A DNA stretch of 64,000 bases, from the NCBI RefSeq assembly GCF_029223525.1, contig NZ_JARHTQ010000002.1, positions 124,001 to 188,000 of the forward strand. The letters are read 5' to 3'. A program made the position numbers and the translations under genes. Source of the stretch: Streptantibioticus ferralitis. GTDB lineage: Bacteria; Actinomycetota; Actinomycetes; Streptomycetales; Streptomycetaceae. Positions 8,098 to 63,398 of the stretch are shown piece by piece; position 1 is the stretch's first letter, and every line of letters starts with the position of its first letter. A model generated the notes under the pieces. It saw only the letters and a list, made by a program, of their open reading frames with translations, searched no databases and was not told where the DNA came from.

Positions 8098-8261
8098 GGC
8101 CGTCCCTCCTGGGGGTCGGGCCGAGAGGAATCGTCCCCGTCGATTCCATCCTCTCAAATGCCGGAGGCCGTGTCCTGCCCAAGCGCGCGCTGCGGCGACC
8201 ATCCCGGTCAGACCAGGGATGCCGCCCGCCGTCATGGGCCGGACACCGCGGGGGGTGGCCG

Positions 8262-8293
8262 CCGCGCCGCCGCGGTGCAGCGCGGCGGCGCGG
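8262..8293 (-). terminator. Terminator of the lux-like operon
   Basis: A 13-bp perfect GC stem (8262-8274 with 8281-8293) with a 6-nt loop lies 24 bp past the stop of the last operon gene. Confidence 0.75.
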
Positions 8294-8316
8294 GCGTGGC
8301 GTCAGGGTGCGAGGTG

Positions 8317-10842
8317 TCAGGGTGCGACGTGTCGGCGGTCGATGACCGAACGAAGCTTCCCGCTCGTGGCGGTCCGCTCGAAGTCAAGCGTGTCGACCGT
8401 CTCCACCGAGCAGCTGAGCAACTCCTCGTCCACCGCGCCGCGCAACTCCGGGCAGCCGTCCAGGAAGGCTTCGCGCGCCACGTCGGGCGCCGGTGCGTAG
8501 CGCCGGTCGAGACGGAGCGTCAGCTGCTCGCGTCCGGTGCCGGAGGACAGCACCATCTGCAGCTCACCGCGGTAGCCCAGGCGTTCCTCCGCGGTCCGGA
8601 CGAACTGGCGGTAGTTGTAGAAGTAGGTACCCACCCGCACCACATCGCCGTGCCGCCCCAGCAGTTCGATGCGCGGGGTATGACTGCCGCAGCCGCACAC
8701 ACCGGGCACCGCACGGCCCAGGTCGCCGATCTCGTAACGGTCGAGGCGCTGTCCCCGCCGGGTCCGGCTGGTGAACACCAGCCGCCCCGGCTGCCCGCCG
8801 AGCACCGGCCGGTCCTCCTGCGGATCGAGGATCTCCAGCGTGTGCAGCTCGGTGAGCACGTGGTGTACCGAGCCTTCGCAGTGGTCGCACTGGTAGCCGA
8901 GCGGTCCGAGGTCCGTGCTCCCGTACGCGGCCGAGCGGATCACCTCCACCCCGAAGTCCTCTTCCAGCGTGCGGCGTTGCTCCGCGGTGAAGTGCTCACC
9001 ACCGTAGAACACCTTGCGGATCCCGCCGTACGGGCCCAGCAGATCGGCCTGGGTGTGGAACAACTGCCACAGGTAGGACGGCATGCCGAAGACGGTGTCC
9101 ACCCGGTACTCCACTAGCGCCTCGGCGATGGCCCGGTGGTCGGGGCCAGCCGCGATCGGGATCTGGGTGGCGCTCAGCCGCTCCAGGATGGAGAAGAAGC
9201 TGATGAAGCTGCCATACATCCCGCCGCAGAAGAACAGGTTCGCCGCCCGGTCACGGCGCGGATCGAACCCCGCGGTCAGCAGGCCGTGCGCGGCGGCGCG
9301 CATCTGCGTGTCGTAGTCGTCGTGGGTGAAGACCGACAGCGCGGGCGCCCCGGTGGTGCCGCCGCTGCGGAAGTACAGCTGGGCGTCGTCCGGATCGATG
9401 TCACGCAGGGCGCGTTGCACGCCCGCCTTGTCCAGCAGCGGCCCGGTGGGCGGGGCGGGCTGGGCGACGGGGCGTATCAGGTCGTCCAGGCAGGCGACGT
9501 CGGCGAACTGGCCGTCCGCCTGCACGCTGACCCGGCGGCTGTAACGCTGTAGGGCGTACACCCCGTCGTGCGGCTCTCCGTGATAGCTGTCCGGCATCGC
9601 GCCGACCGGCGTGATCCGCAGCACCCCGGCCGCGATGGCGGCCCGGGACAGCGCCGCGATGTCGGCCTTGCTGCCGCCGATCGCCGCGGTCTGCAGATAG
9701 CGGCGCATCGGCCGCAGGACCGCGGTCAGCCGGGCCCGGGGCAGCGGCTTGACCCAGATGCTGCGGTGCAACGGGGAGGCCGTCAGCGCGGCCCGGGAGT
9801 CGGCCAGGACACGCCATGAACCGTCCTCGGCCGCGATGACCTTCGTCAGACCGAGATGGCTCTCCAGCCGGGCCACCAACTCGGTGGTGGTGATCTCGGC
9901 CCGGGCCGCCTCGTCGATCACCGGCGCCGGGCGTCCGGCCGACACCCCGGCCAGTACGTCGGCGAACCGCCGGGCGAAGGCGAAGACCTCCTCCGCGTCG
10001 TCCGTGTCGAGGTAGATCACCTGAGGGCTGGAACACGCCTGCTGCTCGAAGCGGCACACGTCCGCCGCCAGTGCGGCCAGCGTGTCCGGCGCGGCCCAGA
10101 CGTCGCGGGTCAGATAGCCGAACGAGATCTTGTGACCCCATTCGATCAACCGGCAGCCCGCCGGAACATGCGCGGCCACCCCCTCGACGGCCGCCTCGCC
10201 GCCCCAGACGGCCACCGCGTCGGCGGCCGCGCAGATGTCCCGCAGCCACTCCTGACGCCGCGACGGGAAGCGCAGCGCGATCAGCCGGGCGGCGATGGCA
10301 CCGGACGGGTCGGCCGCGGCCAGCTCGGCGAGCAGGTGCTGGGCGAGCAGGGTGTCCCCGCTGCTGGTCTTCAGCACGTTGACGTTGCCCGCGAGCAGGC
10401 CCTCGATGACGCTCAGCGGTGCGACGCCCGCCGAGTTGCCCGGCGCGATGTGCACCACGAGTCCGACCGGGGCCCAGGCCTCGAAGACCGTGGTACGCGC
10501 GTCCGGGCGGGTCAACCGGTCCGGCGCGGGGCCGCCGAGTTCCCTGCGCAGCTTGCGGGTCAGCGCCGTACGGCTGATGGCCTCCGCGATCTCGGCGAGT
10601 ACCGCGTCCGCCTCCTCGCCGTCCGTACCCGCCGCGATCAGGGGTTCCGCCAGTCGCGTGCGGACGCCCCGCGCCGGGTCCCGCAGCGCGGTGCTCAGCG
10701 CGTCACAGGCGGCCAGCACCGTGTCGGTGTCCAACGGCTCGGCCAGCGCCCGCTCCACGGTGGTCGGCAGATCGGCCAGTCGCTTGGCCGCTTCGGCGTC
10801 GTCGATGAACGCGCCTTGCCAGAAGTGGTCGTTGCCGGTCAA
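8317..10842 (-). CDS. LuxC-type acyl reductase fused to a PaaK-type adenylating domain
   Basis: An 841-residue two-domain protein. Residues ~1-455 form a LuxC/acyl-CoA reductase (aldehyde dehydrogenase-like). PVGLVVHIAPGNSAG lies in the NADPH region, and the nucleophile is Cys270 in RFEQQACSSPQVIYLD, the LuxC active-site signature. Residues ~470-841 form a PaaK/F390-synthetase-like adenylation domain with SGGTTGAP at 493-500, AAYGSTDLGPLG and YEIGDLGR. The position usually held by lysine after the TTGxP loop is alanine. The start is TTG at 10842. Its TTGA overlaps the stop of the luxE-like gene, and AAGGGA precedes it, so translation is coupled. Known family chemistry: LuxC reduces an acyl group received from LuxE to an aldehyde with NADPH. 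I infer that the fused ligase feeds an acid into the same reaction. Confidence 0.88.
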   Translation of the reverse strand: MTGNDHFWQGAFIDDAEAAKRLADLPTTVERALAEPLDTDTVLAACDALSTALRDPARGVRTRLAEPLIAAGTDGEEADAVLAEIAEAISRTALTRKLRRELGGPAPDRLTRPDARTTVFEAWAPVGLVVHIAPGNSAGVAPLSVIEGLLAGNVNVLKTSSGDTLLAQHLLAELAAADPSGAIAARLIALRFPSRRQEWLRDICAAADAVAVWGGEAAVEGVAAHVPAGCRLIEWGHKISFGYLTRDVWAAPDTLAALAADVCRFEQQACSSPQVIYLDTDDAEEVFAFARRFADVLAGVSAGRPAPVIDEAARAEITTTELVARLESHLGLTKVIAAEDGSWRVLADSRAALTASPLHRSIWVKPLPRARLTAVLRPMRRYLQTAAIGGSKADIAALSRAAIAAGVLRITPVGAMPDSYHGEPHDGVYALQRYSRRVSVQADGQFADVACLDDLIRPVAQPAPPTGPLLDKAGVQRALRDIDPDDAQLYFRSGGTTGAPALSVFTHDDYDTQMRAAAHGLLTAGFDPRRDRAANLFFCGGMYGSFISFFSILERLSATQIPIAAGPDHRAIAEALVEYRVDTVFGMPSYLWQLFHTQADLLGPYGGIRKVFYGGEHFTAEQRRTLEEDFGVEVIRSAAYGSTDLGPLGYQCDHCEGSVHHVLTELHTLEILDPQEDRPVLGGQPGRLVFTSRTRRGQRLDRYEIGDLGRAVPGVCGCGSHTPRIELLGRHGDVVRVGTYFYNYRQFVRTAEERLGYRGELQMVLSSGTGREQLTLRLDRRYAPAPDVAREAFLDGCPELRGAVDEELLSCSVETVDTLDFERTATSGKLRSVIDRRHVAP

Positions 10843-11996
10843 GACATTCCCTTCAGCAGTTCGGCGGCGGCGACCGCGCAACTGCGGTTGCGGCTCAGTC
10901 CGGCACGCCCGTGGATGGTGAACCAGTCGGTGCCCAGCGGGCATTCGCACTCTCCGCCCGGCTGGAGCGAGGCGAGATCTCCCATGACGACGCTGTGCGC
11001 CGGAACCGAGGTGATGTACGGCGAGGCCAGATGCAGATAGCCGCGTTCGCCGTACGGCAACGGCCGCAGCGTTTCGGTCGAGCGCACCGCCGCCCGGGAC
11101 CACACCGGCACATGCAACCGGTGGCGTTCGCACTCCACGTACGGCACGCAGTGCTCGACCGAACCGTAGGTGTCGCGGATCCGGTCGCCGGGGATGCCCA
11201 GTCGCTCGGTGACGGCCGCGTGGAAACGGTCCTTGGGGATCTGCCGGTCGGCGTGTCCCTTCCAGCCGCCGCCGAGCACCACCAGCGAGTCCTCGGGCAA
11301 CCGCAGCGCGGGGACGCCGAGTTCGCGCATCCGCTCCAAGGTGAAGTGCAAGAAGGCGGGGAAGCCCAGGATCCGGACCGGCAGCCCCTCGTCCGCGTAG
11401 CGCTGCAGCGCGTTCAGCACACCGAACACATCGAACTCATGACCCTTGCCGGTGTGCCGCAGGGCGTACGAGACCTGTCGCGCGGGTGCGAAGTCGCACA
11501 GGTAGTTGTCGGTGAACGAGGTGCCAAGCCGCATCTCGGGAGCCGGTTCATAGCTGTACAGAAGGTAGTTGACCGGCTGCTCGGGGGTGATCCACCCGTA
11601 GGAGTCGAAGATCCGGCCGACCATGCGCTGCGCGGCGCGGATGGTCCACTCGTCGAAGAACATCTGCGACTTCTGGCCGCTGGTGCCGGACGAGGTCAGA
11701 TGGAGGAAGACCTCGTCCCGGGGGACGGAGAGCACCTCGTGCAGCTTGAAGAAGTTGGCGTGTACGAGCGGCAGCGAGCCGCCCGGGGTGTCGGCCAGCA
11801 GCGAGCGGAAGAACGGGGAGCGCTGCGCGTGCCAGGCGTTGGCCTCCTCCATGGCGGCTGCGAACAGCGCGTCGGTCCGCTCGTCCTGCGCGTAGGGATC
11901 GGCCAGGTCGCACAGCCGCTGCACGTTCGGCAGCGCCGCGGGGTCGGGGACCTCGACGGGGGCGAGATGCGGGTTCGGCGGATTGGCGGGGTTCAT
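10839..11996 (-). CDS. LuxE-type acyl-protein synthetase/acyltransferase
   Basis: A 385-residue member of the LuxE family (ANL-like). In bioluminescent bacteria LuxE activates a fatty acid with ATP, holds it on a cysteine and passes it to LuxC. The adenylate loop TSSGTSGQKS lies at 101-110. The sequence continues with LLYSYEPAPEMRLGTSFTDN, VVLGGGWKGHADRQI, YGSVEHCVPYVEC and YLHLASPYITSVPAHSVVMG. The near-C-terminal Cys373 in NRSCAVAAAELL sits where LuxE carries its acyl-accepting cysteine. The gene starts with ATG at 11996, overlapping the upstream stop by ATGA. It is followed by the LuxC fusion with another 4-bp overlap. Length and motifs are complete. The acyl substrate is unknown. Confidence 0.9.
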   Translation of the reverse strand: MNPANPPNPHLAPVEVPDPAALPNVQRLCDLADPYAQDERTDALFAAAMEEANAWHAQRSPFFRSLLADTPGGSLPLVHANFFKLHEVLSVPRDEVFLHLTSSGTSGQKSQMFFDEWTIRAAQRMVGRIFDSYGWITPEQPVNYLLYSYEPAPEMRLGTSFTDNYLCDFAPARQVSYALRHTGKGHEFDVFGVLNALQRYADEGLPVRILGFPAFLHFTLERMRELGVPALRLPEDSLVVLGGGWKGHADRQIPKDRFHAAVTERLGIPGDRIRDTYGSVEHCVPYVECERHRLHVPVWSRAAVRSTETLRPLPYGERGYLHLASPYITSVPAHSVVMGDLASLQPGGECECPLGTDWFTIHGRAGLSRNRSCAVAAAELLKGMS

Positions 11997-13135
11997 GAGA
12001 CAACCTCGGGGAGGGGCAGATAAGTCGAAGTCCAGGCCGTCAGATACGCCGTCAGATACGGCTGGAGCAGACCGCCCGCGGCGACGTTGCGGAAGTCGAT
12101 CTGACGGCTGGTGCGGGAGAGCACCACATAGTCGTGGAAGCGGTCGGCGGACCGCCGCATGGCCGGGTAGACGGCGCCGGGTACGAAACCCTGGGCCAGG
12201 AAGGCTGCCAGCCCCGTGCTGTCGGCCAGCGGCAGCAGCGCCTCCACATAGTCGGCGCCGGCCCGCGCGACGGCGTCCATCAGCGGTTCGAGCAAGTCGG
12301 TGACCGCGCCGAGGTGCGGATGCACCGCGACCAGAGCGCAGCTACCGGCCGCCCGGTCCAACTGGGCGTACGCCTCGAAGCGGCCGTCGTCCGGCAGCAG
12401 TACGGCGTTGGGCGTGTGCAGCGGAAAGAAGCGGCTGGCCGGATCGGGGAACAGCTCCAGGAACCGGCGCCGCACGAAACCGGGCGCGTCGACGAGTTCG
12501 AAGTCGGCCCCCGAACGGGTCGTGGAACGCGGCGCGTTCGGGCCGGGCCGGGCGGCCGCCGGATCGCCGAAGCCGACGCCCGTGCTCTCCTCGCAGGCCC
12601 GCAGCAGCGGCAGCAGCGCCTCGGGCACTTCCGGCACGGTCTCCCGGCGGGTCAGGACGCCGTCCGCGTAGCGGACGAACAGCGCCAGGCTCTCGCAACC
12701 CTCGACCTCGGCCGCGTTGGGCATCAGGCCGACCGGCCGGAACCCGTTGCGCAGCACCACGTTCTGCGGACCGCGGGTGACCATACGGACCGTGGCGTAC
12801 ACCGAGTCCACGCCGCCGCCGTCGAACGCCGCCGAGCACACCGACCCGGTCAGCCGCCCGGCCAGGCCCCCCTGGCGGTGCGCGGGATGCACCGCGAGCC
12901 CCACCAGTTTGCCGACGCGGGTCCCCGGATCGGTCTGGACGACCGCGGAACCGGCCAGTTCACCGCTGCCGGTACGGGCGGTGAGCCAGTACGTGTGCGG
13001 GTCGGCGATCAGCCGCCGCATGACCGCGGGATCGCTGCCGAGCGCGACGGGGTAGCCGTGGCCGTAGACGTCGAAGTACAACTGCCGCAGATCGGCGATG
13101 TCGCGAAGTGCCGCCGAGGTGAGCGTCGTGGTCAT
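11993..13135 (-). CDS. Tandem GNAT-family N-acyltransferase
   Basis: A 380-residue protein. The first half is a clear GNAT domain: RVGKLVGLAVHPAHRQGGLAGRL supplies the acyl-CoA pyrophosphate loop at about residues 75-97, after LAGSAVVQTD. The second half (VRRRFLELFPDP, SCALVAVHPHLGAVTDLLEPL, AAFLAQGFVPGAVYPAM) looks like a degenerate second GNAT fold, as in other ~380-residue actinobacterial members. The ATG at 13135 was chosen over a GTG one codon earlier; it shares one base with the stop of the MFS gene. In this operon an amine-acyl transfer step before or after aldehyde formation is a reasonable inference. The true donor and acceptor are not visible. Confidence 0.8.
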   Translation of the reverse strand: MTTTLTSAALRDIADLRQLYFDVYGHGYPVALGSDPAVMRRLIADPHTYWLTARTGSGELAGSAVVQTDPGTRVGKLVGLAVHPAHRQGGLAGRLTGSVCSAAFDGGGVDSVYATVRMVTRGPQNVVLRNGFRPVGLMPNAAEVEGCESLALFVRYADGVLTRRETVPEVPEALLPLLRACEESTGVGFGDPAAARPGPNAPRSTTRSGADFELVDAPGFVRRRFLELFPDPASRFFPLHTPNAVLLPDDGRFEAYAQLDRAAGSCALVAVHPHLGAVTDLLEPLMDAVARAGADYVEALLPLADSTGLAAFLAQGFVPGAVYPAMRRSADRFHDYVVLSRTSRQIDFRNVAAGGLLQPYLTAYLTAWTSTYLPLPEVVS

Positions 13136-14427
13136 CACTGGTCACCAGCCATCGCCGCGGCCGCCTCCAGCGGCTCGTCCAGACCGTCGTCCGCGACGGA
13201 TTCGTGCTGGCTACGTCCGCCCAGCCAGCACAGCGCCAGGGCCGCCGGAACCAGCCCGGCCGCCTGCAGCAGGCACAGCGAACGCGGCGACAGGTGGTCG
13301 CCGAGGAGGCCGAAGACCAGCGAGGAGACCGGGAACGTCGCGCCCAGCAGGGCCTGCATGGCGGCGAAGAACACCGGCTTGTCGGCGGTGGGCACCAGCC
13401 GCTGGAACAGGGCGACGAACCGCACCCCGATCGCGCCGACGCACCACCCGGCGACCACCAGGCAGGCCGCCACGACGGCCTGGTCGGCGACCGCGCCCGG
13501 CACGCCCAGCGCGGCTGCCATCGCCACCAGGCAGGCGCCGCCGGTGGTCGCCGGGCCGCCGGGCAGCAGACGGCCGGTGAACGACCCCACCAACGCGCCG
13601 ATGCCCAGGGCGGATTCGAAGGTGGCGACCGTGCTTCCGTCGGAGTGCAGCACTGAGCGCGTGTACAGCGGCATGACCACGTACACAGCGGTGGTGAACA
13701 GGTTGGCCGCCGTCAGGCACCACAACACGTACCGGATCAGCGGGCGACCGCCGAGCACCTGGCGCAACGTCCGCCGTGCGGCGGTGGCCTGGCCGTCGGC
13801 CGCCTCCTCCGGGGCCGCCGCGAAGCGCGCCAGGCCGAGCACACCGGCCGCCGCCAGGTAGGCCCCGGCGCACCCCGCGAGCACCGCGGGAAAACCTCCG
13901 GCGTCCACCACCAGCGGGCCCAGCAGCCCGCCCGCGAGTCCGGCGAGCGACTGGGTGGCCAGCTCGAATCCGGTGGCCGCCTCGATGTCCGCGTCATCGA
14001 CCAGTTCCGGCACCGAGGTGGTCAGACACGGGTCGAAGAGCGCCTGGCACGCCGCCAGCACCAGCGCCGCCGCGTACGCGGTCACCAGCGGCAGCGCGTG
14101 CAGATGGGCCCAGCCCGCCACCCCGGCCGCGACCACCCCCGCCACGGCGGCCGAGACCCGGAGTACCTCCCGGTGCGGGTACCGGGCGATAACCCGGGCG
14201 ACCAGCGGGGCCAGCGCGACCGCGGGCAGCGTGCTCACCGCGAGGAAGGCACCGGAGGCCAGGCCCTGGTCACCGCCGATCGCATAGCCGACCAGCCACC
14301 ACACGGCGCCGACCTGGAACATCCGGTTGGCGGCCTGGGTGAGTACCTGGGCGGCCCATACGGCGCCGAACGCCCGGTTGCGCAGCACCACGGGCAGCCG
14401 CCGGGCGCTTCTCGGGGTCGCCGTCAT
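13135..14427 (-). CDS. MFS transporter of the lux-like operon
   Basis: A 430-residue integral membrane protein with about 12 hydrophobic segments. Examples are GAVWWLVGYAIGG, LVTAYAAALVLAACQALF and CLVVAGWCVGAIGVRFVALF. It has the MFS layout and the usual central basic loop. The sequence around the first segments (FGAVWAAQVLTQAANRMF) resembles MFS exporters of small molecules. The ATG at 14427 overlaps the stop of the PaaK gene by ATGA. Upstream in-frame residues have no RBS. Located between the adenylating enzyme and the acyltransferases, it probably exports the pathway product or confers self-resistance. Confidence 0.85.
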   Translation of the reverse strand: MTATPRSARRLPVVLRNRAFGAVWAAQVLTQAANRMFQVGAVWWLVGYAIGGDQGLASGAFLAVSTLPAVALAPLVARVIARYPHREVLRVSAAVAGVVAAGVAGWAHLHALPLVTAYAAALVLAACQALFDPCLTTSVPELVDDADIEAATGFELATQSLAGLAGGLLGPLVVDAGGFPAVLAGCAGAYLAAAGVLGLARFAAAPEEAADGQATAARRTLRQVLGGRPLIRYVLWCLTAANLFTTAVYVVMPLYTRSVLHSDGSTVATFESALGIGALVGSFTGRLLPGGPATTGGACLVAMAAALGVPGAVADQAVVAACLVVAGWCVGAIGVRFVALFQRLVPTADKPVFFAAMQALLGATFPVSSLVFGLLGDHLSPRSLCLLQAAGLVPAALALCWLGGRSQHESVADDGLDEPLEAAAAMAGDQ

Positions 14428-15686
14428 GACTGCGCCCTCTCGTCCAGCACCCGGATCAGCTTGCCCGAGCGGGCGTTGACCGCAAGCCCGCCCATCCGGG
14501 CCCACTCCACGGCGGGCGGGTGCACATGACCCGCCAGTGCGGCCTCGGCGTACAGCGGGCGGGCCGCGATCAGCTCCTTGGCGATGGCATCGGCCAACTC
14601 GCCCAGTCCGGTGGTGTCCTGGTCGGTCGCCAGCCGCAGCACCAGTCCGTCACGCCCGTCCCAGCGCCGGGTGACCAGTTGGATGCCGACCACATGTCCC
14701 GCGAGGTCCGCGGCGCCAACGATGTCATGGACGTCCTGCGTGTACAGCGAGACCGGGCCGACGCGCACGCCCTCCTCGGAGCGGCCGAGTATGCGGAAGT
14801 GCCCGGCGTCGGCGTCCACCCATTCCGCGCGGTCACCGACCGGATAGCGCAGGATCGGCATCAGCCGTCTCCGCAGGTCGGTCAGCACGGCACGGCCCGG
14901 CACACCGTTCGCGGTGATCGGCTGCCCGGTGTGCTCGTCGAGGATCTCCATGACGGCGTACGGGGTGAACGAGCGGTGGATGCGGGGATCCCCGCCGGGC
15001 ACGGCGGCGCCGAGCAGCCCGGCGTCCACACTCGCGTAACCGATGGAGCGCGGGGCGGCGTTGGGGAGTGCCCGGGACAACAGCCGGTGCTGATCGGAGA
15101 AGAGACTTTCCCCGCCGAAGAACAGCAGTTCAACCCGGGGAAGTTGGCGACCGGACGCGATGAGGTGGTCGGCCAGCGAGCACAGTGTGGTCGGAGTCCC
15201 CGCCACCACATCGACGTCGAATTCCGTCAGCGTGTGTACGGTCGACTCCAGTGGGGCCGCACCGCCGATCGGCAGTCGTACGTTGCCGACGGGGGAGTGC
15301 TGGAGTGCGTCCAGAATGAACGTGAAACTGGCGTAGAGCTCGCCCGCGTAGAACAGGTCCGCAACTCGGTGCCCCGGACGCAGCCCGGCCCCGACCAGGT
15401 TCTCACCGAAGGCGGCGGTGAATTCGCGCCACTCTTCACGTGTATAGAAGGAGAATTTGGGTGCCCCGGTCGTGCCACCGCTTTTGAAGACCACCGCTTC
15501 GTCCAGCGGCCCGGTCAACAGGCGATTGCCGCGTGGTGTGTTGGCTCGCCAGAACTCGGTCTGCGGCACCACCGGAAGGTCCGTCAGCTCTGTGACCCGA
15601 TCCGGCAGATCGGCGTAGAGCCGGGAGTAGAACGGTGAGTTGTGACGCACGAAGCGTATGAGTTCCGATATTTGTTGAACGGGCAT
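14424..15686 (-). CDS. PaaK-type phenylacetate-CoA ligase family adenylating enzyme
   Basis: A 420-residue ANL enzyme of the PaaK/coenzyme F390 synthetase branch. It has the ATP loop SGGTTGAPKFSFYT (Lys77 present), VVAGTPTTLCSLADHL, LLFFGGESLF, GYASVDAGLLG and the C-terminal hinge ILRYPVGDRAEW. It is full length for the family. It is the first gene of the five-gene operon. The ATG at 15686 has AGGGA about 5 nt upstream, and translation is coupled to the MFS gene by ATGA. Known reaction type: acid + ATP to acyl-AMP, often then to CoA. With a second PaaK domain at the other end of the operon, it may activate a different acid or supply the LuxE protein. The substrate is unknown; PaaK enzymes often take aryl or short acids. 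Confidence 0.88.
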   Translation of the reverse strand: MPVQQISELIRFVRHNSPFYSRLYADLPDRVTELTDLPVVPQTEFWRANTPRGNRLLTGPLDEAVVFKSGGTTGAPKFSFYTREEWREFTAAFGENLVGAGLRPGHRVADLFYAGELYASFTFILDALQHSPVGNVRLPIGGAAPLESTVHTLTEFDVDVVAGTPTTLCSLADHLIASGRQLPRVELLFFGGESLFSDQHRLLSRALPNAAPRSIGYASVDAGLLGAAVPGGDPRIHRSFTPYAVMEILDEHTGQPITANGVPGRAVLTDLRRRLMPILRYPVGDRAEWVDADAGHFRILGRSEEGVRVGPVSLYTQDVHDIVGAADLAGHVVGIQLVTRRWDGRDGLVLRLATDQDTTGLGELADAIAKELIAARPLYAEAALAGHVHPPAVEWARMGGLAVNARSGKLIRVLDERAQS

Positions 15687-15716
15687 CGATCCCTGCTTTG
15701 TGGCATGCGAAGGAGA

Positions 15717-15742
15717 GTGATGTCACATGGTGGTGAGATCAC
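15717..15742 (-). promoter_or_regulatory. Paired GTGAnnTCAC palindromes upstream of the lux-like operon
   Basis: Two 10-bp palindromes, GTGATGTCAC (15717-15726) and GTGAGATCAC (15733-15742), are separated by 6 bp and lie 31-56 bp before the operon's first ATG. Their centres are 16 bp apart. Placement and symmetry suggest an operator for a dimeric regulator. The cognate protein is not obvious in the window. Confidence 0.45.
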
Positions 15743-16076
15743 TTTGACGGGTGTGGCCGTCGTACGGGCCCTGCTGGCGGCAGCGGTCCGTACCCCGGAT
15801 TTCGGGGCTATTTCCGACGGGCGGGGAGCACGCTAGCTGTAACCGCGGTGGCCGGTGCAAGCGGGCAGGCGATTTCCGGCCGGTTCCGGCTGGAAAGAAA
15901 ACAGAAGGTGAATAGTCGTGTTCTGGCCAACTCGCCATGAGCTCGGGCCACTTGATGTCCCCACAGAACAATAACGGTACCACCCCTTCCGGCCCATTTT
16001 CGAACCGTGCTCGCGGGCCGCTGGGATACCCCTGTGCGGGTACCGTGGTATAGGCGGCGCGGCTGGAAAGCACTGC
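15743..16076. other. Upstream region of the lux-like operon, non-coding
   Basis: A 330-bp stretch between the operon promoter region and the glucoamylase terminator. It includes an A-rich patch around 15895-15925. I see no gene in it. Confidence 0.4.
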
Positions 16077-24428: not shown

Positions 24429-25001
24429 TCAGCCCTCGCCCCCCGGCATCAGCGTGTTGGCGACCTCGCGGGCGACAGTGAGGATGTCCAGGTCGGGCAG
24501 GGAGAGGTCCTGCGCGGCAAAGCTGGCGAGGTTGACGCTGAACAGGGCGACCCGGGCGCGGAGTTGGTCGGCCGGTGCGGCGTCCGGGCCGAGGATGAGG
24601 TCGACGAGCTCGGCGATCCGGCCCTTCACGCCCCCGCGGTCGGGCGCGAGATCCCGGATGACGTGCTGGTTGGTGGTGGCGAAGCGGGCGATCTGCAGGC
24701 CGCGGCGTCCGGACAGGTCCACCCAGCGTGACAGGATCTCGTCCCGCAGGGTGGCGCTGCGGGGCTGCGTGCGGCCCCAGGCGAGGAGATCGTCCAGTTC
24801 TTGGACGTACTCGTCGAAGAGGGCGCGGATGATGTCTTCCTTGCCCGCGAAGTGGTAGTACAGCGCGGCCTTGGAGATGTCCAGGCGCTCGGCGATCTCC
24901 CGCATCGAGGTCGCCTCGTAGCCATTCTCGGCGAACAGGTGGAGCGCGACCTCCTGGATCTCCGCCTTGGTGTCGCTGCCCTTGCGTCGCCGCTCGGTCA
25001 T
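24429..25001 (-). CDS. TetR-family repressor of the adjacent MFS exporter
   Basis: A 190-residue regulator. HTH at ~10-58: AEIQEVALHLFAENGYEATS, MREIAERLDISKAALYYHF, AGKEDIIRALFDEY. The C-terminal ligand-binding half begins LDDLLAWGRTQPRS and ends VANTLMPGGEG. ATG at 25001 was chosen for GAGG 7 nt upstream; an ATG four codons earlier has its GAGA too close. It is divergent from a 14-segment MFS gene. Two operator-like palindromes lie in the 155-bp gap, so drug-relieved repression of both genes is likely. Confidence 0.9.
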   Translation of the reverse strand: MTERRRKGSDTKAEIQEVALHLFAENGYEATSMREIAERLDISKAALYYHFAGKEDIIRALFDEYVQELDDLLAWGRTQPRSATLRDEILSRWVDLSGRRGLQIARFATTNQHVIRDLAPDRGGVKGRIAELVDLILGPDAAPADQLRARVALFSVNLASFAAQDLSLPDLDILTVAREVANTLMPGGEG

Positions 25002-25056
25002 GTCGTGCCTCATCTCTCGTCCGTCGACCTCGATCTTCCCCCATCGCAAGGCCGCA

Positions 25057-25076
25057 CTTGCCGACCGTCCGGTAAG
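25057..25076. promoter_or_regulatory. TetR-type operator candidate, box 1
   Basis: A 20-bp imperfect palindrome, CTTGC-N10-GTAAG, with core CGACCGTCCG. It shares the GACCG-N2-CGGTAAGTA block with box 2, 43 bp away, about four helical turns. Confidence 0.55.
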
Positions 25077-25099
25077 TAAGTTACCTTCCAAGGGTACGG

Positions 25100-25119
25100 C
25101 TTACTGACCGGACGGTAAG
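25100..25119. promoter_or_regulatory. TetR-type operator candidate, box 2
   Basis: CTTAC-N10-GTAAG with perfect 5-bp arms and core TGACCGGACG, on the MFS side of the divergent gap. The spacer between the boxes also contains an imperfect TAAG...CTTA inverted repeat. Confidence 0.6.
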
Positions 25120-25156
25120 TAGGCGCGAGAACCTCGGACCCCATGGGACGGACTTC

Positions 25157-26743
25157 ATGGCCACGGACACCCTGGCGGGCACGGGCGGCGCACCGCCCGA
25201 GCGCGCCCGCTTCAGCAGCCGCCAGATCCTCGTCGCCATGAGCGGCCTGGTCATCGCGATGCTGCTGGCCCAGCTCGACAACATGATCGTGGCCCCGGCG
25301 CTGCCGACGATCGTCGGCGATCTGGGCGGTCTGAACCATCTGGCCTGGGTGACCACCGGCTACATCCTGGCCTCCACGGTGGCGACCCCGCTCTGGGGCA
25401 AGCTGGGCGACCTGTACGGCCGCCGGTCCAGCTTCATGTTCTCGATCGTGATCTTCCTGGTCGGCTCCGCACTGGCCGGTATGTCGCAGAACATGGCGGA
25501 ACTGATCGGATTCCGTGCCCTGCAGGGCTTGGGCGCCGGTGGCCTGATGGTCGGCGTGATGGCGATCCTGGCCGAGCTGGTGCCGCCCCGCGAGCGGGGC
25601 AAGTACTCGGGCGTGATGATGGCCGTCATGCCCGTGGCGATGATCGGCGGGCCGCTGGTGGGCGGTTTCATCACCGACCACCTGAGCTGGCGGTGGGCGT
25701 TCTACGTGAATCTGCCGCTGGGCGTCATCGCCCTGGTCGTGTGCTGGTTCACCCTCAGGCGGCTGCCCTCGGGAAGCGGGGCGGCGCGGGTGGACTGGAG
25801 CGGCGCCGCGCTGCTGACCACGTGGATCACCGCCCTGGTGCTGATCACCAGCTGGGGCGGCAGCCAGTACGCGTGGGGCTCCTGGCAGATCGCCGCACTC
25901 GGCGTCATCACGGTGGTCGCCTTCGCGGTGTTCGTCGCCGTCGAGCGGCGGGCGAGCGACCCGATCATGCCGTTGAACGTCTTCAAGGACACCAACTTCT
26001 CGCTGGCCGGGGCGCTCAGCTTCATCTCCGGCTTCGCGCTGTTCGGCGGGGTGACCTTCCTGCCCCAGTTCCAGCAGTTCGTGCAGGGCGCCTCGGCCAC
26101 CAACAGCGGTCTGCTGCTGATGCCCATGATGATCTCCGTCATGGTCGTCTCGCTGGTGGGCGGCGCCCTCATCACCAGGACCGGCCGCTACCGCGCCCTG
26201 CCGATCGTCGGCAGCGCACTGATCGTCGTCGGCCTCCTGTTGTTCGCCACGATGGACACGCACACCTCCAGCACCACGACCGCGCTCTACATGGTGGTGC
26301 TCGGCGCGGGCATGGGCGGACTGCTGCAGACCACCGCGCTCATCGCTCAGAACAGCGTGCCCATGCGGGACGTGGGCGCCGCCACCGGAGCGTCGACCTT
26401 CCTGCGCAACATGGGCGGTTCGCTCGGCGTCTCGCTGCTCGGCGCGGTCTACACCAGCCACCTCAGCGACTACCTGACGGCCCACGGCTCGGCTGCCGCG
26501 CACCGCTCGGGCTCGGCCGCCCAGATGACCCCCGCCGCGCTACGCGCCCTGCCCGAGGCCGCCCGCCAGCTGTTCCAGAACGCCGTGGTCAACGGCATCG
26601 GGGCGATCTTCGCCTGGGGCGCGGCGATCGCCGCCATCGGGTTCGTCCTCGCCTGGTTCATCCGCCATGTCCCGCTGCGCGGCGCGACCACGGCACCGGT
26701 CGAGGCTGCCCCCGCCGTCGAGGAGCAGTCACTGACCGTCTGA
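25157..26743 (+). CDS. MFS multidrug exporter, DHA2 (14-TMS, EmrB/QacA) type
   Basis: A 528-residue membrane protein. It has the DHA2 signature LDNMIVAPALPTIVGDLGG in TM1, motif A WGKLGDLYGRRSSFMFSIV, RALQGLGAGGLMVGVMAI, and motif C around VMPVAMIGGPLVGGFITDH. About 14 hydrophobic segments are visible, ending AAIGFVLAWFIRHVP. These transporters export hydrophobic drugs by proton antiport. ATG at 25157; the RBS is moderate. It is controlled, by context, by the divergent TetR. A strong terminator follows. Confidence 0.93.
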   Translation: MATDTLAGTGGAPPERARFSSRQILVAMSGLVIAMLLAQLDNMIVAPALPTIVGDLGGLNHLAWVTTGYILASTVATPLWGKLGDLYGRRSSFMFSIVIFLVGSALAGMSQNMAELIGFRALQGLGAGGLMVGVMAILAELVPPRERGKYSGVMMAVMPVAMIGGPLVGGFITDHLSWRWAFYVNLPLGVIALVVCWFTLRRLPSGSGAARVDWSGAALLTTWITALVLITSWGGSQYAWGSWQIAALGVITVVAFAVFVAVERRASDPIMPLNVFKDTNFSLAGALSFISGFALFGGVTFLPQFQQFVQGASATNSGLLLMPMMISVMVVSLVGGALITRTGRYRALPIVGSALIVVGLLLFATMDTHTSSTTTALYMVVLGAGMGGLLQTTALIAQNSVPMRDVGAATGASTFLRNMGGSLGVSLLGAVYTSHLSDYLTAHGSAAAHRSGSAAQMTPAALRALPEAARQLFQNAVVNGIGAIFAWGAAIAAIGFVLAWFIRHVPLRGATTAPVEAAPAVEEQSLTV

Positions 26744-26753
26744 CCGGAACGCG

Positions 26754-26785
26754 GATGGCCCCACCGCAGCCGCGGTGGGGCCATC
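26754..26785. terminator. Bidirectional terminator
   Basis: A 14-bp perfect stem (26754-26767 with 26772-26785) with a 4-nt loop sits in the 55-bp gap between convergent MFS and P450 genes. Confidence 0.88.
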
Positions 26786-26798
26786 GTTGCGTACGCGG

Positions 26799-29700
26799 TC
26801 AGCTGCCGGCGTAGACGTCCTCGACGTACCGCCCCCGCTCGACCAGGTCCTGCCACCACCGTTCGGCCGCCGCCGCGTCCGCTCCCGTGCGGTCCGCGTA
26901 CAGCCGCTGGAACGCGGCGCGCACTCCCGGTGCCATCCGGGCGCCGTCACCGCAGACATAGACCTTGGCGCCGGTTTCGAGCAGCCGCCACACCTCGTCG
27001 GCCTCGGTGGCGATCCGGTCCTGGACGAACGACCAGTCGTTCTGCGGGGCCTTGAAGAACGTCGGCCGCATCGAGACCGCCCCCTGCGCCTGGGCGCTCT
27101 CCAACTCGTCGCGGTGCAGGTAGTCGACTTCCGGGTGGTCGCAGCCGAAGTAGCACAACGCCGGTGCGAGCGCCGTGCCTTGGCGGATCAGCGACACCCG
27201 GTCGGCGATCGCGCCCCGGAAGGGTGCCAGGCCGGTACCGGCGCTGATCATGATGACCGGTGTGCTGGGCCCGGACTCGACGCGGAAGGACTCCCGGCAC
27301 GGCTGGATCCGCGCGTACACCGTGTCCCCGGCCCGTACCCGGTGCAGATACGAGGACCCCACACCGTTGAAGGTGCCGCGCCCGGACCGGGCCGGAGCGC
27401 TGAGCAGCGAGACCATCAGGTCGACGTGCGTCGCGTCGGCGGCGGGCGAGGAGGAGACCGAGTAGTGCCGGGGGCGCATCGCGGGCAGCAGTTCCAGCAG
27501 CACCGGCCAGCTCAGACGGCCCTGGAGGGCCGGATGGTCCTCGATGACGTCGAGCAGGCTGCCGCGCGTCCCTTCGCCGGCCAACTGCCGCAGTGCGGCC
27601 TGCTCGGGCGGGCACGGGTTCAGCTCGGCCAGCAGGGCGAGGTGGGCGGCGGTGGGGGAGCCCTGCAACTCCACGTAGCGGCTGAGGAGTTCGAACACGG
27701 TGACCGGCCGGTCGAGGGGGAGCGTGGCCCGGGTCGGCCGGTGGGCGCGGATGCTGAGCACCGCACTCGGGTCGGCACCGAACAGCCGGACCGCCCGTTC
27801 GGCCAGCGCGGGATCGTTCACCGGAAGCACGGTCAGGTGATCGGCGGTCCTGTATGCGGCGCCCTCCGGGAGGGCGATGCGCACGAAGCGCTTGGAACGG
27901 CCGAGCGGGTGCCGCAGATCCGCGAGGTCGCCGGTCTCCAGCACCGTCATCGGGGTCATACCGTGCCGCTCGGCGAGCGCGTCCAGTGGCGCACCGGCGA
28001 CCTCGGTCACCTCGTACGTCCGGCCGGGACCGGCGCTGTCCGCGGACTCCGGGAGCGCGTCCGGGTCGCCGTACCGCTCCAGCAGCGTCCCGCGCAGCGC
28101 CGCGGTGAAGCGCTCGACGGATCCGGCCAGATCGCCCGAGGCGTCGGCCTCCGCCCGCTCCAGCATCCGGGTGCCGCCGAGCTCGGCGAGCCGGTCGTCG
28201 ATCAGGGTGGGCACCCGCTGGTATGTGGCCGCCCAGTTGCGGTCGCCGACGCCCAGTACGGCGAACCGCACACCGTCGGCGGCGCCGGGTGCGGCCTGCG
28301 ACAGCCAGCAGACGAAGGCGTCGGCGTCGTCCGTGGGCTGCCCGTTGTAGGAGGCGGCGACGATGACGACGGGGGAGTCGGTGGGGAGCGCGGCGGTGTG
28401 GTCGTTCAGCGCCGCGACACTGACGTCGAAGCCCAAGTGGTCGGCGGTGTCGGCCAGTTCGGCGGCGAACTCACGGCAGGTACCGAAGTTGGAGCCGTGC
28501 AGCACGGTGAGCGCGGTACCGGGCAGCACCCGGGACGGCAGCGGGGCGTCGGTGGTACCGTCGGCCCGGACCGCTTCGGCCGTGACCTGGCCGACCGCCC
28601 GAGCGGCCCTGCCGCGCTGCCGCTCCTGCGCCGTGCGCGGTGCCAACGTGAGGGTGCAGCCCTCGGGCTTGAGGGTGAGTGTCTCCTTGATCCGCAGCTG
28701 GTAACCGGCGTGGTCGAGGAAGCGGTAGCGGTGGATCAGCAGGCCGAGCAGCATGGTGGCCTCGTGCAGCGCGAACTGCCGTCCGATGCAGGCGCGTTCA
28801 CCGGTGCCGAACGGCTTGAAGGCGTTGGGCGAGCGCGCTGCCTCGGCGTCCGGTGCGAAGCGGTCGGGGTCGAACTCCTCGACGTTGTCGCCCCAGACGG
28901 GGTCGCGGTGCAGCATCGGCGTGAGCACCACCATGCTCTGCCCGGCCTTGATCGGATACCGCCCGCCGATCACGGTGTCCACCCGCGCCTGACGCAGGAA
29001 GGCGGCGGCGGTCGGCCACAGGCGCAGCGTCTCGTTGAGGATCTGGCGTACGTAGCGCAGCTTGCCGATGTCCTCGTAGGACGGCTCGGGGTCTGCGGTG
29101 TCCCCCCACAGGGCGTCGACCTCGGCCTGGGCCAGGTGCAGCACCTGCGGATTCTTCATCAGGTAGTAGAGGGCGAACGACAGGGTGCCGGAGGTGGTCT
29201 CGTGTCCGGCGATCAGGAAGGTGATCACCTGGTTGCGGATGTTCGCCTCGTCCAGCAACTCCCCGCTGTCCGGATGAGGTGAGCCCAGCATCAGACCGAG
29301 CAGGTCATCGGTCGAGGTGTCCCCGTTCGCCTTGCGCTTGCCGATCACCTCGTCGACCACCTCGGCCAGGAAGGCGGCGTCGGCACGGAACTGCGCGTCC
29401 TGTCGCGAGTGGTCGGCGCCCGGGACCCGTGCCAGGCTCTCCTGGCTGTACGCCAGCGCGCGCACCAGCGCCTGGACGAACGGATGCGGATCGGTCCGGC
29501 GGAACGACTCGAAGTCGTAGCCGAACCCCGACAGGCCGATGGTGTCCAGCGTCATCCGGGTCATGTCGTCCGCGACGTTCACCGGCACCGCATCCGCCAG
29601 GTGCGCGTCCCAGGAGGCGATGAGCCGCCGCGCCACCCGGAGCATGGTGGGGTGGTACGTCCGCATGGAGCCGAGCGCGAACGCGGGCAGCAGGATGTCA

Positions 29701-30026
29701 TGCGCCTTGGCCCAGTTGGGCTCCTCGTTGTACGCGGTGAACAGGCCGTCCGCGGTGATCCCCCGGACGTTCTCCAGCGCCGGGCCGATCCCCTTGCGGA
29801 ACCGCGTCTCGTCCGAGATCTCCTCGACCAGCTCCAGCGAGGAGGCGAAGGCGGTGTCCCGGTCGTGGAAGCGCTGTACGAAGAACGGGCCATGGCGGCG
29901 GGCGAGTGCGATCGCCCGTTGCAGCGGAGTGCTGGTGGGCGCCGCTGTCGACAGGTCGACGGTGGGCAACTCCAGCTCCGGGTACGCCCGGAGGCCCTGG
30001 ATCCTGGCGGACTGCGTGTCGATCAT
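26799..30026 (-). CDS. Self-sufficient cytochrome P450-NADPH reductase fusion (CYP102/BM3-like)
   Basis: A 1075-residue natural fusion, close to P450 BM3 in length, that hydroxylates long-chain or related substrates with NADPH without partner proteins. Haem domain ~1-460: ADGLFTAYN (Phe96 at the BM3 Phe87 position), I helix FLIAGHETTSG, ExxR in NETLRLW, haem loop PFGTGERACIGRQFA with Cys413. Flavodoxin domain from ~505: LTVLHGSNFGTCREFAAELA. FAD/NADPH reductase ~690-1075: RPRHYSVSSSP, MISAGTGLAPFRG, YFGCDHPEVDYLHRDEL, VYVCGDGARMAPGV. ATG at 30026 has GGGAGAGG 10 nt upstream. Divergent from a PAS-LuxR regulator with a palindrome between. Confidence 0.95.
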   Translation of the reverse strand: MIDTQSARIQGLRAYPELELPTVDLSTAAPTSTPLQRAIALARRHGPFFVQRFHDRDTAFASSLELVEEISDETRFRKGIGPALENVRGITADGLFTAYNEEPNWAKAHDILLPAFALGSMRTYHPTMLRVARRLIASWDAHLADAVPVNVADDMTRMTLDTIGLSGFGYDFESFRRTDPHPFVQALVRALAYSQESLARVPGADHSRQDAQFRADAAFLAEVVDEVIGKRKANGDTSTDDLLGLMLGSPHPDSGELLDEANIRNQVITFLIAGHETTSGTLSFALYYLMKNPQVLHLAQAEVDALWGDTADPEPSYEDIGKLRYVRQILNETLRLWPTAAAFLRQARVDTVIGGRYPIKAGQSMVVLTPMLHRDPVWGDNVEEFDPDRFAPDAEAARSPNAFKPFGTGERACIGRQFALHEATMLLGLLIHRYRFLDHAGYQLRIKETLTLKPEGCTLTLAPRTAQERQRGRAARAVGQVTAEAVRADGTTDAPLPSRVLPGTALTVLHGSNFGTCREFAAELADTADHLGFDVSVAALNDHTAALPTDSPVVIVAASYNGQPTDDADAFVCWLSQAAPGAADGVRFAVLGVGDRNWAATYQRVPTLIDDRLAELGGTRMLERAEADASGDLAGSVERFTAALRGTLLERYGDPDALPESADSAGPGRTYEVTEVAGAPLDALAERHGMTPMTVLETGDLADLRHPLGRSKRFVRIALPEGAAYRTADHLTVLPVNDPALAERAVRLFGADPSAVLSIRAHRPTRATLPLDRPVTVFELLSRYVELQGSPTAAHLALLAELNPCPPEQAALRQLAGEGTRGSLLDVIEDHPALQGRLSWPVLLELLPAMRPRHYSVSSSPAADATHVDLMVSLLSAPARSGRGTFNGVGSSYLHRVRAGDTVYARIQPCRESFRVESGPSTPVIMISAGTGLAPFRGAIADRVSLIRQGTALAPALCYFGCDHPEVDYLHRDELESAQAQGAVSMRPTFFKAPQNDWSFVQDRIATEADEVWRLLETGAKVYVCGDGARMAPGVRAAFQRLYADRTGADAAAAERWWQDLVERGRYVEDVYAGS

Positions 30027-30106
30027 GCCCGATGCCTCTCCCGGTGATGTCGGGGCTGTTGCTGACTCCACGATTGCCGAGTTCAGCGACCGTTCCGGCG
30101 GAAGAA

Positions 30107-56483: not shown

Positions 56484-57292
56484 TCTGCTGCCTTCGACAC
56501 CGGCGTGCACGCCGTCGACTTCCGGGCCGATCCCGACGGAGCCCGCAGGACCGTCAACGATCTGGTCAAGCGGCAGACCGACGGGCAGATCAAGGGCCTC
56601 TTCCCGTCCGGGTCGATCGACGGCAGCACCCGGCTGGTGCTCACCGACGCGGTCACCTTCAAGGCGAAGTGGCAGCAGTCCTTCCGCGCTGATGAGACCA
56701 CTGGCGAGCACTTCCACCGCCTCGACGGGTCAACGAGCGATGCCCGGCTGATGAACCACGACGGCCGGTACGGATATGCCGAGGGCGCGGGCTGGCAGGC
56801 CGTTGAACTCCCGTACCAGGGTGGGCACCTGGCCATGGACGTCCTGCTGCCGAACAGTGGCGGCCTGCAGGGCCTGCAGGGGTTCGTCAGCTCGCTGACT
56901 CCCGGGCGGCTTGTGCAGATAGCCGGAGGTCTGCACGAGACCGGAGTGCGCCTGGCGCTGCCCCGTTTCACCTTCGACTACCAGCAGACGCTGAGCTCCA
57001 CCCTGGCGCGGCTGGGTATGCCCACCGCCTTCAGCGACGGGCAGGCGGACTTCGGCGGCATCGCGACCGATCCCGCGGAGCGGATCCACGTCCGGAACGT
57101 GGTGCAGAAGGCCCATGTGGCGGTCGACGAGGACGGCACGACCGCGGCGGCGGGCAGCGGAGTGGCCGTGGGCGTGGCCGCCGCCCCTCGCACACGGTGT
57201 TCCGGGCGGACCGCCCGTTCGTCTTCCTCATCCGCGACCTGCGGTCCGGACAGATCCTGTTCCTCGGTCAGGTCACCGATCCACGGCGGTAG
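56484..57292 (+). pseudogene. Serpin (serine protease inhibitor) fragment, truncated and frameshifted
   Basis: The frame gives serpin sequence from about residue 130 onward: TGVHAVDFRADPDGARRTVN, LVKRQTDGQIKGLFPSGSID, LVLTDAVTFKAKWQQSF, VQKAHVAVDEDGTTAAAGSG (hinge of the reactive loop). Near 57190 the phase changes, and the family C-terminus continues in another frame: HTVFRADRPFVFLIRDLRSG and ILFLGQVTDPRR to a TAG at 57290-57292. Both the N-terminal third and the continuous reading frame are lost. Bacterial serpins are about 380-420 residues. Confidence 0.87.
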
Positions 57293-57315
57293 CTCTCGGC
57301 AGGGCGCGGATCCCT

Positions 57316-57855
57316 TCAGTCCGCGCGGATCGGGGTGCGCAACGCGGTTCTGGCGTGGCCGATGAGGGCCCGGCCGGCCGGGCCGATCGGTCCTTCCGCT
57401 CGCCAGGCGAGCGCGATCCGCCCGCGCAACCGCGGGTGGGTGATGCGCACCGCGTGCAGTTCCGTCCGGTGCGCGGCCGCCAGGGAGGCAGGCAGAACGG
57501 CCACGCCCAGCCCTCGCGCGGCGAGTTGCACGAGCACCCGCGGATCGCTGGCCTCGAAGGCGACACGCGGCGGGAAGCCCGCCGCCGCACAGGCATCATC
57601 AACACGTGAGCGCAGGCCGGTGCCGCGGGGGAGGCTGATCAGCGGAAGGTCCCGCAGCCCCGAGAGCGTAATGGTCCGCCGCCCGTCCAGTGTGTGGCCA
57701 TGGCTGACCGCGGTGACCAGCAACTCGTCCGCGACGACATGGATTTCGACTCCCGATGGCGTCGTGGACCCCAGGCCGACAGCCACAACGTCATGCGCGA
57801 AGGGGCGGATGACCTGCTGAAGATCCTGCTTGAGGTGCCGCGGCGGTAACCCGAC
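57316..57855 (-). pseudogene. LysR-family regulator, effector-domain fragment
   Basis: Only the C-terminal effector-binding half is present: VADELLVTAVSHGHTLDGRR, DLPLISLPRGTGLRSRVDDA, RVAFEASDPRVLVQLAARGL, GVAVLPASLAAAHRTELHAV. The HTH domain and linker helix are absent. Between LPPRHL and VAVGLG roughly 20-25 residues are also missing compared with relatives. No RBS-linked start exists. It abuts the phosphodiester glycosidase gene by 15 bp. It is part of the same decayed patch as the serpin. Confidence 0.75.
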
Positions 57856-57869
57856 GTACAGGCAGGGGG

Positions 57870-59219: not shown

Positions 59220-59365
59220 GACTTCCCCAAGTCCTCTTCGGATACCGGATATCCAGACGAATACCCGTGAATTCGCTCTGATTAGCGGGGATATCCCTAC
59301 ATGGCGGAAGTACTCGCCGCATTGGGCGCGCAGGAATTGCGGGACGCCAGACGGTGTGGTTACTG

Positions 59366-59501
59366 GTTGATCAACGCTCCGGTTGATCAGGGCTGCGTCG
59401 ATCAACGCTGAGTCAGTCAACGCTGAGTCAGTCAACGCAGAGTCAGTCGACGCGGAGTCAGCCGACGCTGAGTCGATCAGCGATCAGTTGATCAGCGATC
59501 A
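59366..59501. repeat. 15-bp tandem repeat, nine units
   Basis: Units of 15 bp, consensus GTCAGTCAACGCTGA, run from 59366 to the last codon of the LigD-polymerase gene. The best units are 59412-59426 and 59427-59441, differing by one base. Outer units are more diverged, with GATCA replacing AGTCA. One unit has a 1-bp insertion. If translated it gives a pentapeptide repeat such as SVNAE or ALTDS. Confidence 0.85.
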
Positions 59502-60506: not shown

Positions 60507-60572
60507 GGCTCCACGCTAGGTTCTGGCGGCCGTCGGCGCGCGCGGTGGACCGCTGGGACGCAGCATCGGAGT

Positions 60573-61634: not shown

Positions 61635-61933
61635 GCGGTGCCGGTCTGCCGGTGCGCGCGCTCGCCCGGCTTGCCCGAGGAGAACACCTGGGGACGGGGG
61701 AAGCCGGTGTCCAGGTTCTCGACGTTCCTACCGGTGAGCGACGGGCGACACGGGCAGTCCCTGTCTTCTGCCGTCGTCTCAGGGATCACCGAGTGGAGGT
61801 GCTGTCCTGAGTATCGAAGCGGCGTCGGGCCGCCTCGATCTGGCTCGGCCGCAAACTCCGGTCTGGTTCGCTTGGGCTTCGCAAGCGCCTTGTGAGTGGA
61901 CGGGGACGTCCCCGCGGATGCCGCGGCCGGCGG
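61635..61933. other. Intergenic, 299 bp, no gene recognised
   Basis: Between the ligC stop and the 3' end of the frameshifted gene. Short frames exist on both strands without RBS or recognisable sequence. Confidence 0.4.
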
Positions 61934-62440: not shown

Positions 62441-62446
62441 AGGCAT

Positions 62447-63298: not shown

Positions 63299-63398
63299 TC
63301 GGAGGGTGTCTTGGATTCTGTGAAATTGGATTCCGTGAAAGCGGATGTGGCCGAATTAGGTGGCGGAACTTCCGTCACTGCTGAAGGAGGATCGCGGC

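What the first reader, a model, noticed from the sequence alone, without database searches (positions are those of the whole stretch)
8317..15686. Free-standing LuxC/LuxE acid-reductase operon with two PaaK-type activators, a GNAT protein and an exporter
Seen: five minus-strand genes whose stops and starts overlap at every junction. They encode a PaaK-type ligase, MFS, tandem GNAT, LuxE-type and LuxC-PaaK proteins, with an own terminator and a putative operator. Known: LuxE takes an activated acyl group on cysteine and LuxC reduces it with NADPH to an aldehyde. In bioluminescence the aldehyde feeds luciferase, which is absent here. Inference: the operon makes and exports a small aldehyde-derived or amide-derived molecule from free acids, without PKS or NRPS genes. 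I do not know a described system with this exact gene set.
Basis: partly seen in the sequence, partly recalled or inferred. Interest (0 to 1): 0.86.

Follow-up and report, generated by a model that had tools for sequence, protein, structure and literature searches.

The report
Leupeptin-type peptide-aldehyde operon in Streptomyces
A compact five-gene operon that most likely builds and exports leupeptin or a close analogue, a protease inhibitor that ends in an aldehyde, by an enzyme route already described in gut and insect-pathogenic bacteria but not, as far as we could find, tied to Streptomyces.

Summary
In detail: five minus-strand genes (PaaK ligase, MFS, tandem GNAT, LuxE, LuxC-PaaK fusion), every junction a 4-nt overlap, catalytic motifs conserved in relatives. 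The kind of system is not new. It is best explained as a leupeptin-type operon (N-acyl-Leu-Leu-argininal). Leupeptin in Xenorhabdus is made by separate AMP ligases plus a reductase (PMC11212599, passage). Published leupABCD coordinates give about 5.8 kb with an adjacent transporter (PMC8283571, passage). Homologous gammaproteobacterial loci found here read LuxE, LuxC-PaaK, PaaK, GNAT in 5,757-5,857 bp. The full five-gene order occurs in 44 of 80 fetched loci, including Streptomyces roseus ATCC 31245, a named leupeptin producer whose genome shows one strong LuxC and no NRPS thioester-reductase over the curated cut-off. A related LuxE is in 71 of 375 sampled Streptomycetaceae genomes. Extras: a second locus type without the MFS gene, coexisting with the first in the three held genomes of this genus; and an upstream hairpin with covarying stem. 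No proven leup sequence could be compared directly, and the product is untested.

The parts
14424..15686 (-). PaaK1: stand-alone PaaK-type AMP-dependent ligase; proposed peptide-bond-forming ligase
   Evidence: glycine-rich motif kept in 87 aligned loci, C-terminal Lys in 85 with 2 gaps (a few rows cross-assigned with PaaK2)
13135..14427 (-). MFS exporter
   Evidence: MFS_1; weaker matches to MFS_3 and EntS
11993..13138 (-). tandem GNAT N-acyltransferase (ATG alternative start at 13135); proposed N-acyl-amino-acid synthase
   Evidence: AlphaFold model and structure matches
10839..11996 (-). LuxE-type acyl-protein synthetase; acyl Cys in GRAGLSRNRSC
   Evidence: Cys in 132 of 133 aligned rows, the other a gap; some genes appear twice among the rows
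8317..10842 (-). LuxC acyl reductase fused to a second PaaK ligase; TTG start
   Evidence: LuxC Cys in 129 of 130 rows, the other a gap
15716..15743 (-). hairpin upstream of the operon, 29 nt before the first start codon; stem covaries among near relatives
8260..8295 (-). strong GC-rich hairpin just after the operon, no U-tract

Best explanation
A leupeptin-type operon. The GNAT caps a free amino acid (leucine in leupeptin) with an acyl group from acyl-CoA. The two PaaK-type ligases activate the growing acyl-peptide as an adenylate and join the next amino acid (Leu, then Arg), giving N-acyl-Leu-Leu-Arg. LuxE adenylates the C-terminal carboxyl, takes it on its conserved cysteine and passes it to the cysteine of LuxC, which reduces it with NADPH to the argininal aldehyde. 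The MFS protein exports the protease inhibitor. Shown here: gene content, order, conserved active residues, homology to gammaproteobacterial loci that agree with the published leup operon in layout and size, and presence in a named leupeptin producer. Inferred: the order of steps, which ligase adds which residue, and that the product in this strain is leupeptin rather than a close analogue.
For: Five-gene order complete in 44 of 80 relatives' loci, 3 more cut or broken. A LuxE of 54-58% identity is in 15 of 392 genomes sampled from one gammaproteobacterial family (unnamed; Enterobacteriaceae by inference) and on two Salmonella plasmid records, followed by LuxC/PaaK, PaaK and a GNAT-sized or annotated GNAT gene (domains checked by Pfam in one locus). 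The run spans 5,757-5,857 bp in the 16 loci measured against 5,781 bp counted from the leupA primer start, or 5,831 bp for the whole published range. An upstream MFS gene is confirmed in L152; a transporter adjoins leupABCD in Klebsiella. PMC11212599 (passage): leupeptin in X. bovienii comes from separate AMP-dependent ligases and a reductase, not an NRPS. The operon is in S. roseus ATCC 31245 (L038), named the leupeptin producer in PMC10548850. That genome's best thioester-reductase match is 66.5 bits (cut-off 213.35) and lies in an epimerase/3Beta_HSD-type protein; it has one strong LuxC, 310.8 bits, and three matches at 21 bits. In the LuxE tree the 44 leup-type rows form one clade, 100/99. 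Foldseek lists histidine N-acetyltransferase, a tandem GNAT solved with a free amino acid, among the GNAT matches.
Against: The published Klebsiella primers do not match these loci at up to 4 mismatches, and the peptide comparison with them is indecisive. The gammaproteobacterial GNAT tested matches the window's weakly and only in the first domain. Ligase specificity cannot be read from sequence here. S. roseus is a draft genome of untold completeness. PMC10548850 and PMC11212599 (passages) attribute Streptomyces leupeptin to NRPS, the latter with leupeptin detected in strains that hold an antipain NRPS cluster. The tree tool warns that some deep joins link long branches.
Confidence: 0.82

Rival explanations
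1. Same enzymology but a different N-acyl di- or tripeptide aldehyde (another cap or other residues), not leupeptin.
For: The family spans several phyla and at least two locus types in Streptomycetaceae, so products may differ. The window proteins are only 64-73% identical to those of S. roseus, the GNAT 55%.
Against: The S. roseus copy has the same gene order and its LuxE falls in the same 16-row clade as the window's, 98/94.
Confidence: 0.25
2. LuxE/LuxC reduce a fatty or aryl acid to an aldehyde (as in lux, or as recalled for GriC/GriD-type aryl acid reduction), and the PaaK enzymes are CoA ligases.
For: Pfam and NCBIfam name the domains after lux and phenylacetate enzymes. The LuxC-LuxE entry 7xc6 is a sequence relative.
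Against: LuxE falls in a different clade from the nine other LuxE rows taken from the gammaproteobacterial order searched. NCBIfam lux scores are far below cut-off, 74 and 78 bits against 550 and 750. The layout match to leup and the recurring GNAT partner are unexplained.
Confidence: 0.08
3. Streptomyces leupeptin is made by an NRPS with a terminal reductase domain, and this operon makes something unrelated.
For: PMC10548850 and PMC11212599 (passages) attribute Streptomyces peptide aldehydes, leupeptin included, to NRPS.
Against: No thioester-reductase domain over the curated cut-off in the S. roseus ATCC 31245 draft genome, while each of the 5 other genomes searched has at least one. Those 5 also carry the operon, so they do not separate the two routes.
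Confidence: 0.07

Closest known systems
leupABCD leupeptin operon of Xenorhabdus, Photorhabdus and Klebsiella michiganensis (Li et al. 2020, not held, recalled and as cited in PMC8283571, PMC11480411, PMC11212599)
   Same: separate AMP ligases plus a reductase; four genes in about 5.8 kb; adjacent transporter; the homologous loci found here hold LuxE, LuxC-PaaK fusion, PaaK and GNAT
   Different: Streptomyces order is PaaK, MFS, GNAT, LuxE, LuxC-PaaK with the exporter inside the operon; the GNAT is longer (381 against 295-322 aa)
luxCE fatty acid reductase of bioluminescence (structure 7xc6)
   Same: LuxE Cys and LuxC Cys, ATP and NADPH chemistry (recalled)
   Different: two extra ligases, GNAT and exporter; scores far below the lux equivalog cut-offs
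NRPS-reductase peptide aldehydes (antipain, livipeptin)
   Same: product class: peptide aldehyde protease inhibitor (predicted here)
   Different: no NRPS modules or reductase domain in this operon

Membership tests
leup-type leupeptin operon | AMP-dependent ligases plus a carboxyl reductase encoded together, with a transporter | tested here: met
leup-type leupeptin operon | direct sequence homology to an experimentally proven leup locus | tested here: inconclusive
   proven locus not held; primers do not match the fetched loci; size and layout agree
leup-type leupeptin operon | present in a strain known to make leupeptin | tested here: met
   S. roseus ATCC 31245, L038
leup-type leupeptin operon | product is N-acyl-Leu-Leu-argininal | not testable with these tools
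   needs chemistry
lux fatty acid reductase | scores over the NCBIfam LuxC and LuxE equivalog cut-offs | tested here: not met
   77.8 of 750 and 74.1 of 550 bits
lux fatty acid reductase | conserved LuxE and LuxC cysteines | tested here: met
NRPS-reductase peptide aldehyde | NRPS modules with a reductase domain in the cluster | tested here: not met
   five genes, no such domain reported for them

The most novel reading that the evidence does not exclude
Streptomycetaceae hold two separate leup-type pathways that make different peptide aldehydes. The three held genomes of this genus carry both: the window operon, and a second locus with GNAT, LuxE and LuxC-PaaK facing a separate PaaK and lacking the MFS gene. 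The window operon is controlled by a structured RNA leader not described for any leupeptin locus we found. The same LuxE/LuxC pair has also been recruited next to RiPP enzymes (L093), so 'ligase plus LuxE/LuxC' would be a general non-NRPS way to put an aldehyde on a peptide.
Probability: 0.3. Interest if true: 0.65.

Novelty: new member of a known kind. Interest (0 to 1): 0.42.

Why it matters
Leupeptin was reported from actinomycetes in 1969 (reference seen), and two recent open papers still attribute its synthesis in Streptomyces to an NRPS. This operon is present in a named producer strain, and a related LuxE is in 71 of 375 sampled Streptomycetaceae genomes. It gives a simple, testable candidate for the real pathway and suggests that the gammaproteobacterial leup route is widespread.

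Tried and rejected
Considered and rejected: bioluminescence or fatty aldehyde supply; aryl acid reduction of the grixazone type (recalled, no call supports it). Sigma-70 promoter scan: nothing, 0 against 0.3 expected. Attempts to reach a Klebsiella genome by a published primer in 60 genomes (one 3-mismatch hit, in a 3.2-Mb genome, not followed) and by a guessed genus centre failed. The primer-peptide comparison was too short to decide. A distant search of E. coli genomes with Salmonella plasmid genes gave no match. Flanking genes are shared by at most about 10 of 48 Streptomyces loci, but my simple ORF caller mis-framed some genes, so synteny counts rest on tblastn. MFE z-scores of 95 bases upstream in 48 loci average only -0.67: the leader claim is limited to the window's clade. 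Rows dropped: L153 from the span list because its LuxC/PaaK frames are broken; L091 as a near copy of L090; L092 from the hairpin alignment because it lacks the hairpin. L146 is kept in the span list although its LuxC/PaaK frame is interrupted. In one search a few PaaK1/PaaK2 rows are cross-assigned, and some genes occur twice because overlapping loci were fetched.
Full report
Observation. The five genes are real. On the minus strand they read PaaK1 (420 aa), MFS (430), GNAT (381), LuxE (385) and LuxC-PaaK2 (841, TTG start), with a 4-nt overlap at each of the four junctions and no internal stops. Pfam and NCBIfam assign the domains. The window lies in an 8.8-Mb genome whose nearest named relatives in the scan are Streptomyces sp. 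RPT161 and Streptantibioticus rubrisoli, 86-90% identical over the operon's proteins. The next gene upstream is a GH15/glucodextranase protein with CBM20, then an alpha/beta hydrolase; I see no link to the operon.

Relatives. One scan of genome contigs with the LuxC-PaaK protein gave 80 loci, a capped list of 90 confirmed. In 44 the order PaaK1-MFS-GNAT-LuxE-LuxC-PaaK2 is complete on one strand by tblastn; 3 more actinobacterial loci are cut by a contig end (L029, L066) or broken (L067); the other 33 are from other groups. Of those 33, 16 have LuxE-LuxC-PaaK2-PaaK1 in a row (Azorhizobium, Bacteriovorax and kin, Desulfobulbaceae, Pseudomonas and one unnamed bacterium). The 13 clostridial-type loci (L077-L089) show LuxE and LuxC, one of them LuxC only. 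In a sample of 375 Streptomycetaceae genomes a LuxE with E below 1e-60 is present in 71.

Active residues. The LuxE acyl cysteine is present in 132 of 133 rows and the LuxC cysteine in 129 of 130, the remaining row a gap in each. The glycine-rich ATP motif and the C-terminal lysine of the two PaaK groups are kept in nearly all of 87 loci: Lys in 85 with 2 gaps for PaaK1, in 83 with 3 gaps and 1 Arg for PaaK2. Which residues are catalytic is recalled from the families. The only PDB match of LuxE at E below 0.01 is chain E of 7xc6, and LuxC matches chain A of the same entry. The GNAT model (pLDDT 86.9, pTM 0.87) has two GNAT-like halves. Its best Foldseek matches are single GNATs; tandem GNATs 2wpw and histidine acetyltransferase 9emp/9en3 align along the whole length but superpose poorly, rmsd 13-15.

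What it is. Passages read: PMC11212599 says that leupeptin in Xenorhabdus bovienii derives from a non-NRPS pathway of separate AMP-dependent ligases and a reductase. PMC8283571 gives four genes leupABCD, coordinates and an adjacent transporter. PMC11480411 describes the leup operon of Klebsiella and a pyrazinone derived from leupeptin. The founding paper is not held; I rely on citations and memory for it. I therefore looked for this gene set in gammaproteobacteria. At leup-like similarity (E below 1e-120) LuxE is in 2 of 394 genomes of one order (37 of 394 at 1e-20, mostly other LuxE) and in 15 of 392 of one family. It is followed by LuxC-PaaK, PaaK and a GNAT-sized gene, with domains confirmed by Pfam in L143. 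The run from LuxE start to the last gene's end measures 5,757-5,857 bp in 16 loci: 14 of the 15 family genomes, one Pseudomonas and one Salmonella plasmid. The published coordinates give 5,781 bp from the leupA primer start, or 5,831 bp in all.

Producer test. The operon is in S. roseus ATCC 31245 (L038), called the leupeptin producer in PMC10548850. If that strain used an NRPS, a thioester-reductase domain would be expected. Its best TIGR01746 match is 66.5 bits (cut-off 213.35), in a protein that Pfam assigns to epimerase/3Beta_HSD (65 bits for NAD_binding_4), whereas each of the 5 other genomes searched has a match over the cut-off. It has one strong LuxC, 310.8 bits; three further matches are at 21 bits, just over the cut-off. 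This is the most direct evidence, limited by the draft state of the genome.

Mechanism. From the families: GNAT caps Leu; two PaaK ligases build the peptide through adenylates; LuxE loads the C-terminal carboxyl on its cysteine; LuxC reduces it with NADPH; MFS exports. The fusion of PaaK2 to LuxC suggests that the last ligation and the reduction are coupled (inference).

Second locus. The same genome has a paralogous set on another contig, 66% for LuxE and 60% for LuxC. In the 375-genome sample 20 genomes have a LuxE in the band of 62-68% identity to the window's; identity alone does not define the group, since S. alboflavus (L047, 64%) has the window's gene order. I opened 12 of those 20: all 12 have GNAT-LuxE-LuxC-PaaK2, PaaK1 is convergent in 11 and co-directional in 1, and no homologue of the window's MFS shows in the stretches. 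The three held genomes of this genus have both types; every other genome with a match has one. In the tree the second type of these three genomes is a clade of its own (100/100) beside the window's group.

Leader. Upstream of the first gene 17 of 17 loci of the window's clade have a hairpin that ends 25-31 nt before the start codon. The mean stem score is 24.6 against 10.5 (sd 3.4) in shuffles, though 16.5% of shuffles reach the weakest, L016. On the MAFFT alignment, in which one subgroup is out of register by a base, 72.2% of cells pair, 7 of 11 pairs have changes on both sides, and cells with double changes number 22 against 12.2 in shuffles (0 of 500 as high; covariation score 2 of 500), higher than in all six slid versions. 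But pairs with a double change and further pair types are no more than in shuffles (193 and 363 of 500), and related sequences inflate such counts. L092 lacks the hairpin, and other Streptomyces loci have hairpins elsewhere or none. A transcript-level leader is my preferred reading; function is untested.

Literature check on novelty: searches showed no paper that ties this operon in Streptomyces to leupeptin. They cover an open-access library, some listings were capped at 15-30 papers, and Li et al. 2020 may already mention actinobacterial homologues.

Noticed in passing
L093 (Streptomyces europaeiscabiei linear plasmid NZ_CP109155.1), 886-9344: LuxE and LuxC beside a YcaO-like protein, an MBL-fold protein and an MbnB/TglH/ChrH-type enzyme: a possible RiPP whose C-terminus is reduced to an aldehyde.
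   Followed up: partly
L003/L004 (window genome, contig C88, about 57,000-63,500): Second leup-type locus with convergent PaaK and no MFS homologue; same layout in all 12 such loci opened.
   Followed up: partly
window 15716-15743: Hairpin with covarying stem upstream of the operon in 17 of 17 near relatives aligned.
   Followed up: partly
L090, L091 (Salmonella enterica plasmids CP054717.1, CP053580.1): A leup-like gene set on IncF plasmids typed as conjugative, near recombinase genes.
   Followed up: no
L063 (Methanomassiliicoccaceae archaeon): LuxE, LuxC and PaaK2 homologues in an archaeal MAG, at the base of the leup-type LuxE clade on a long branch.
   Followed up: no
window 24429-30071: P450 fused to flavodoxin, FAD- and NAD-binding domains, beside an MFS transporter and a TetR regulator.
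   Followed up: no
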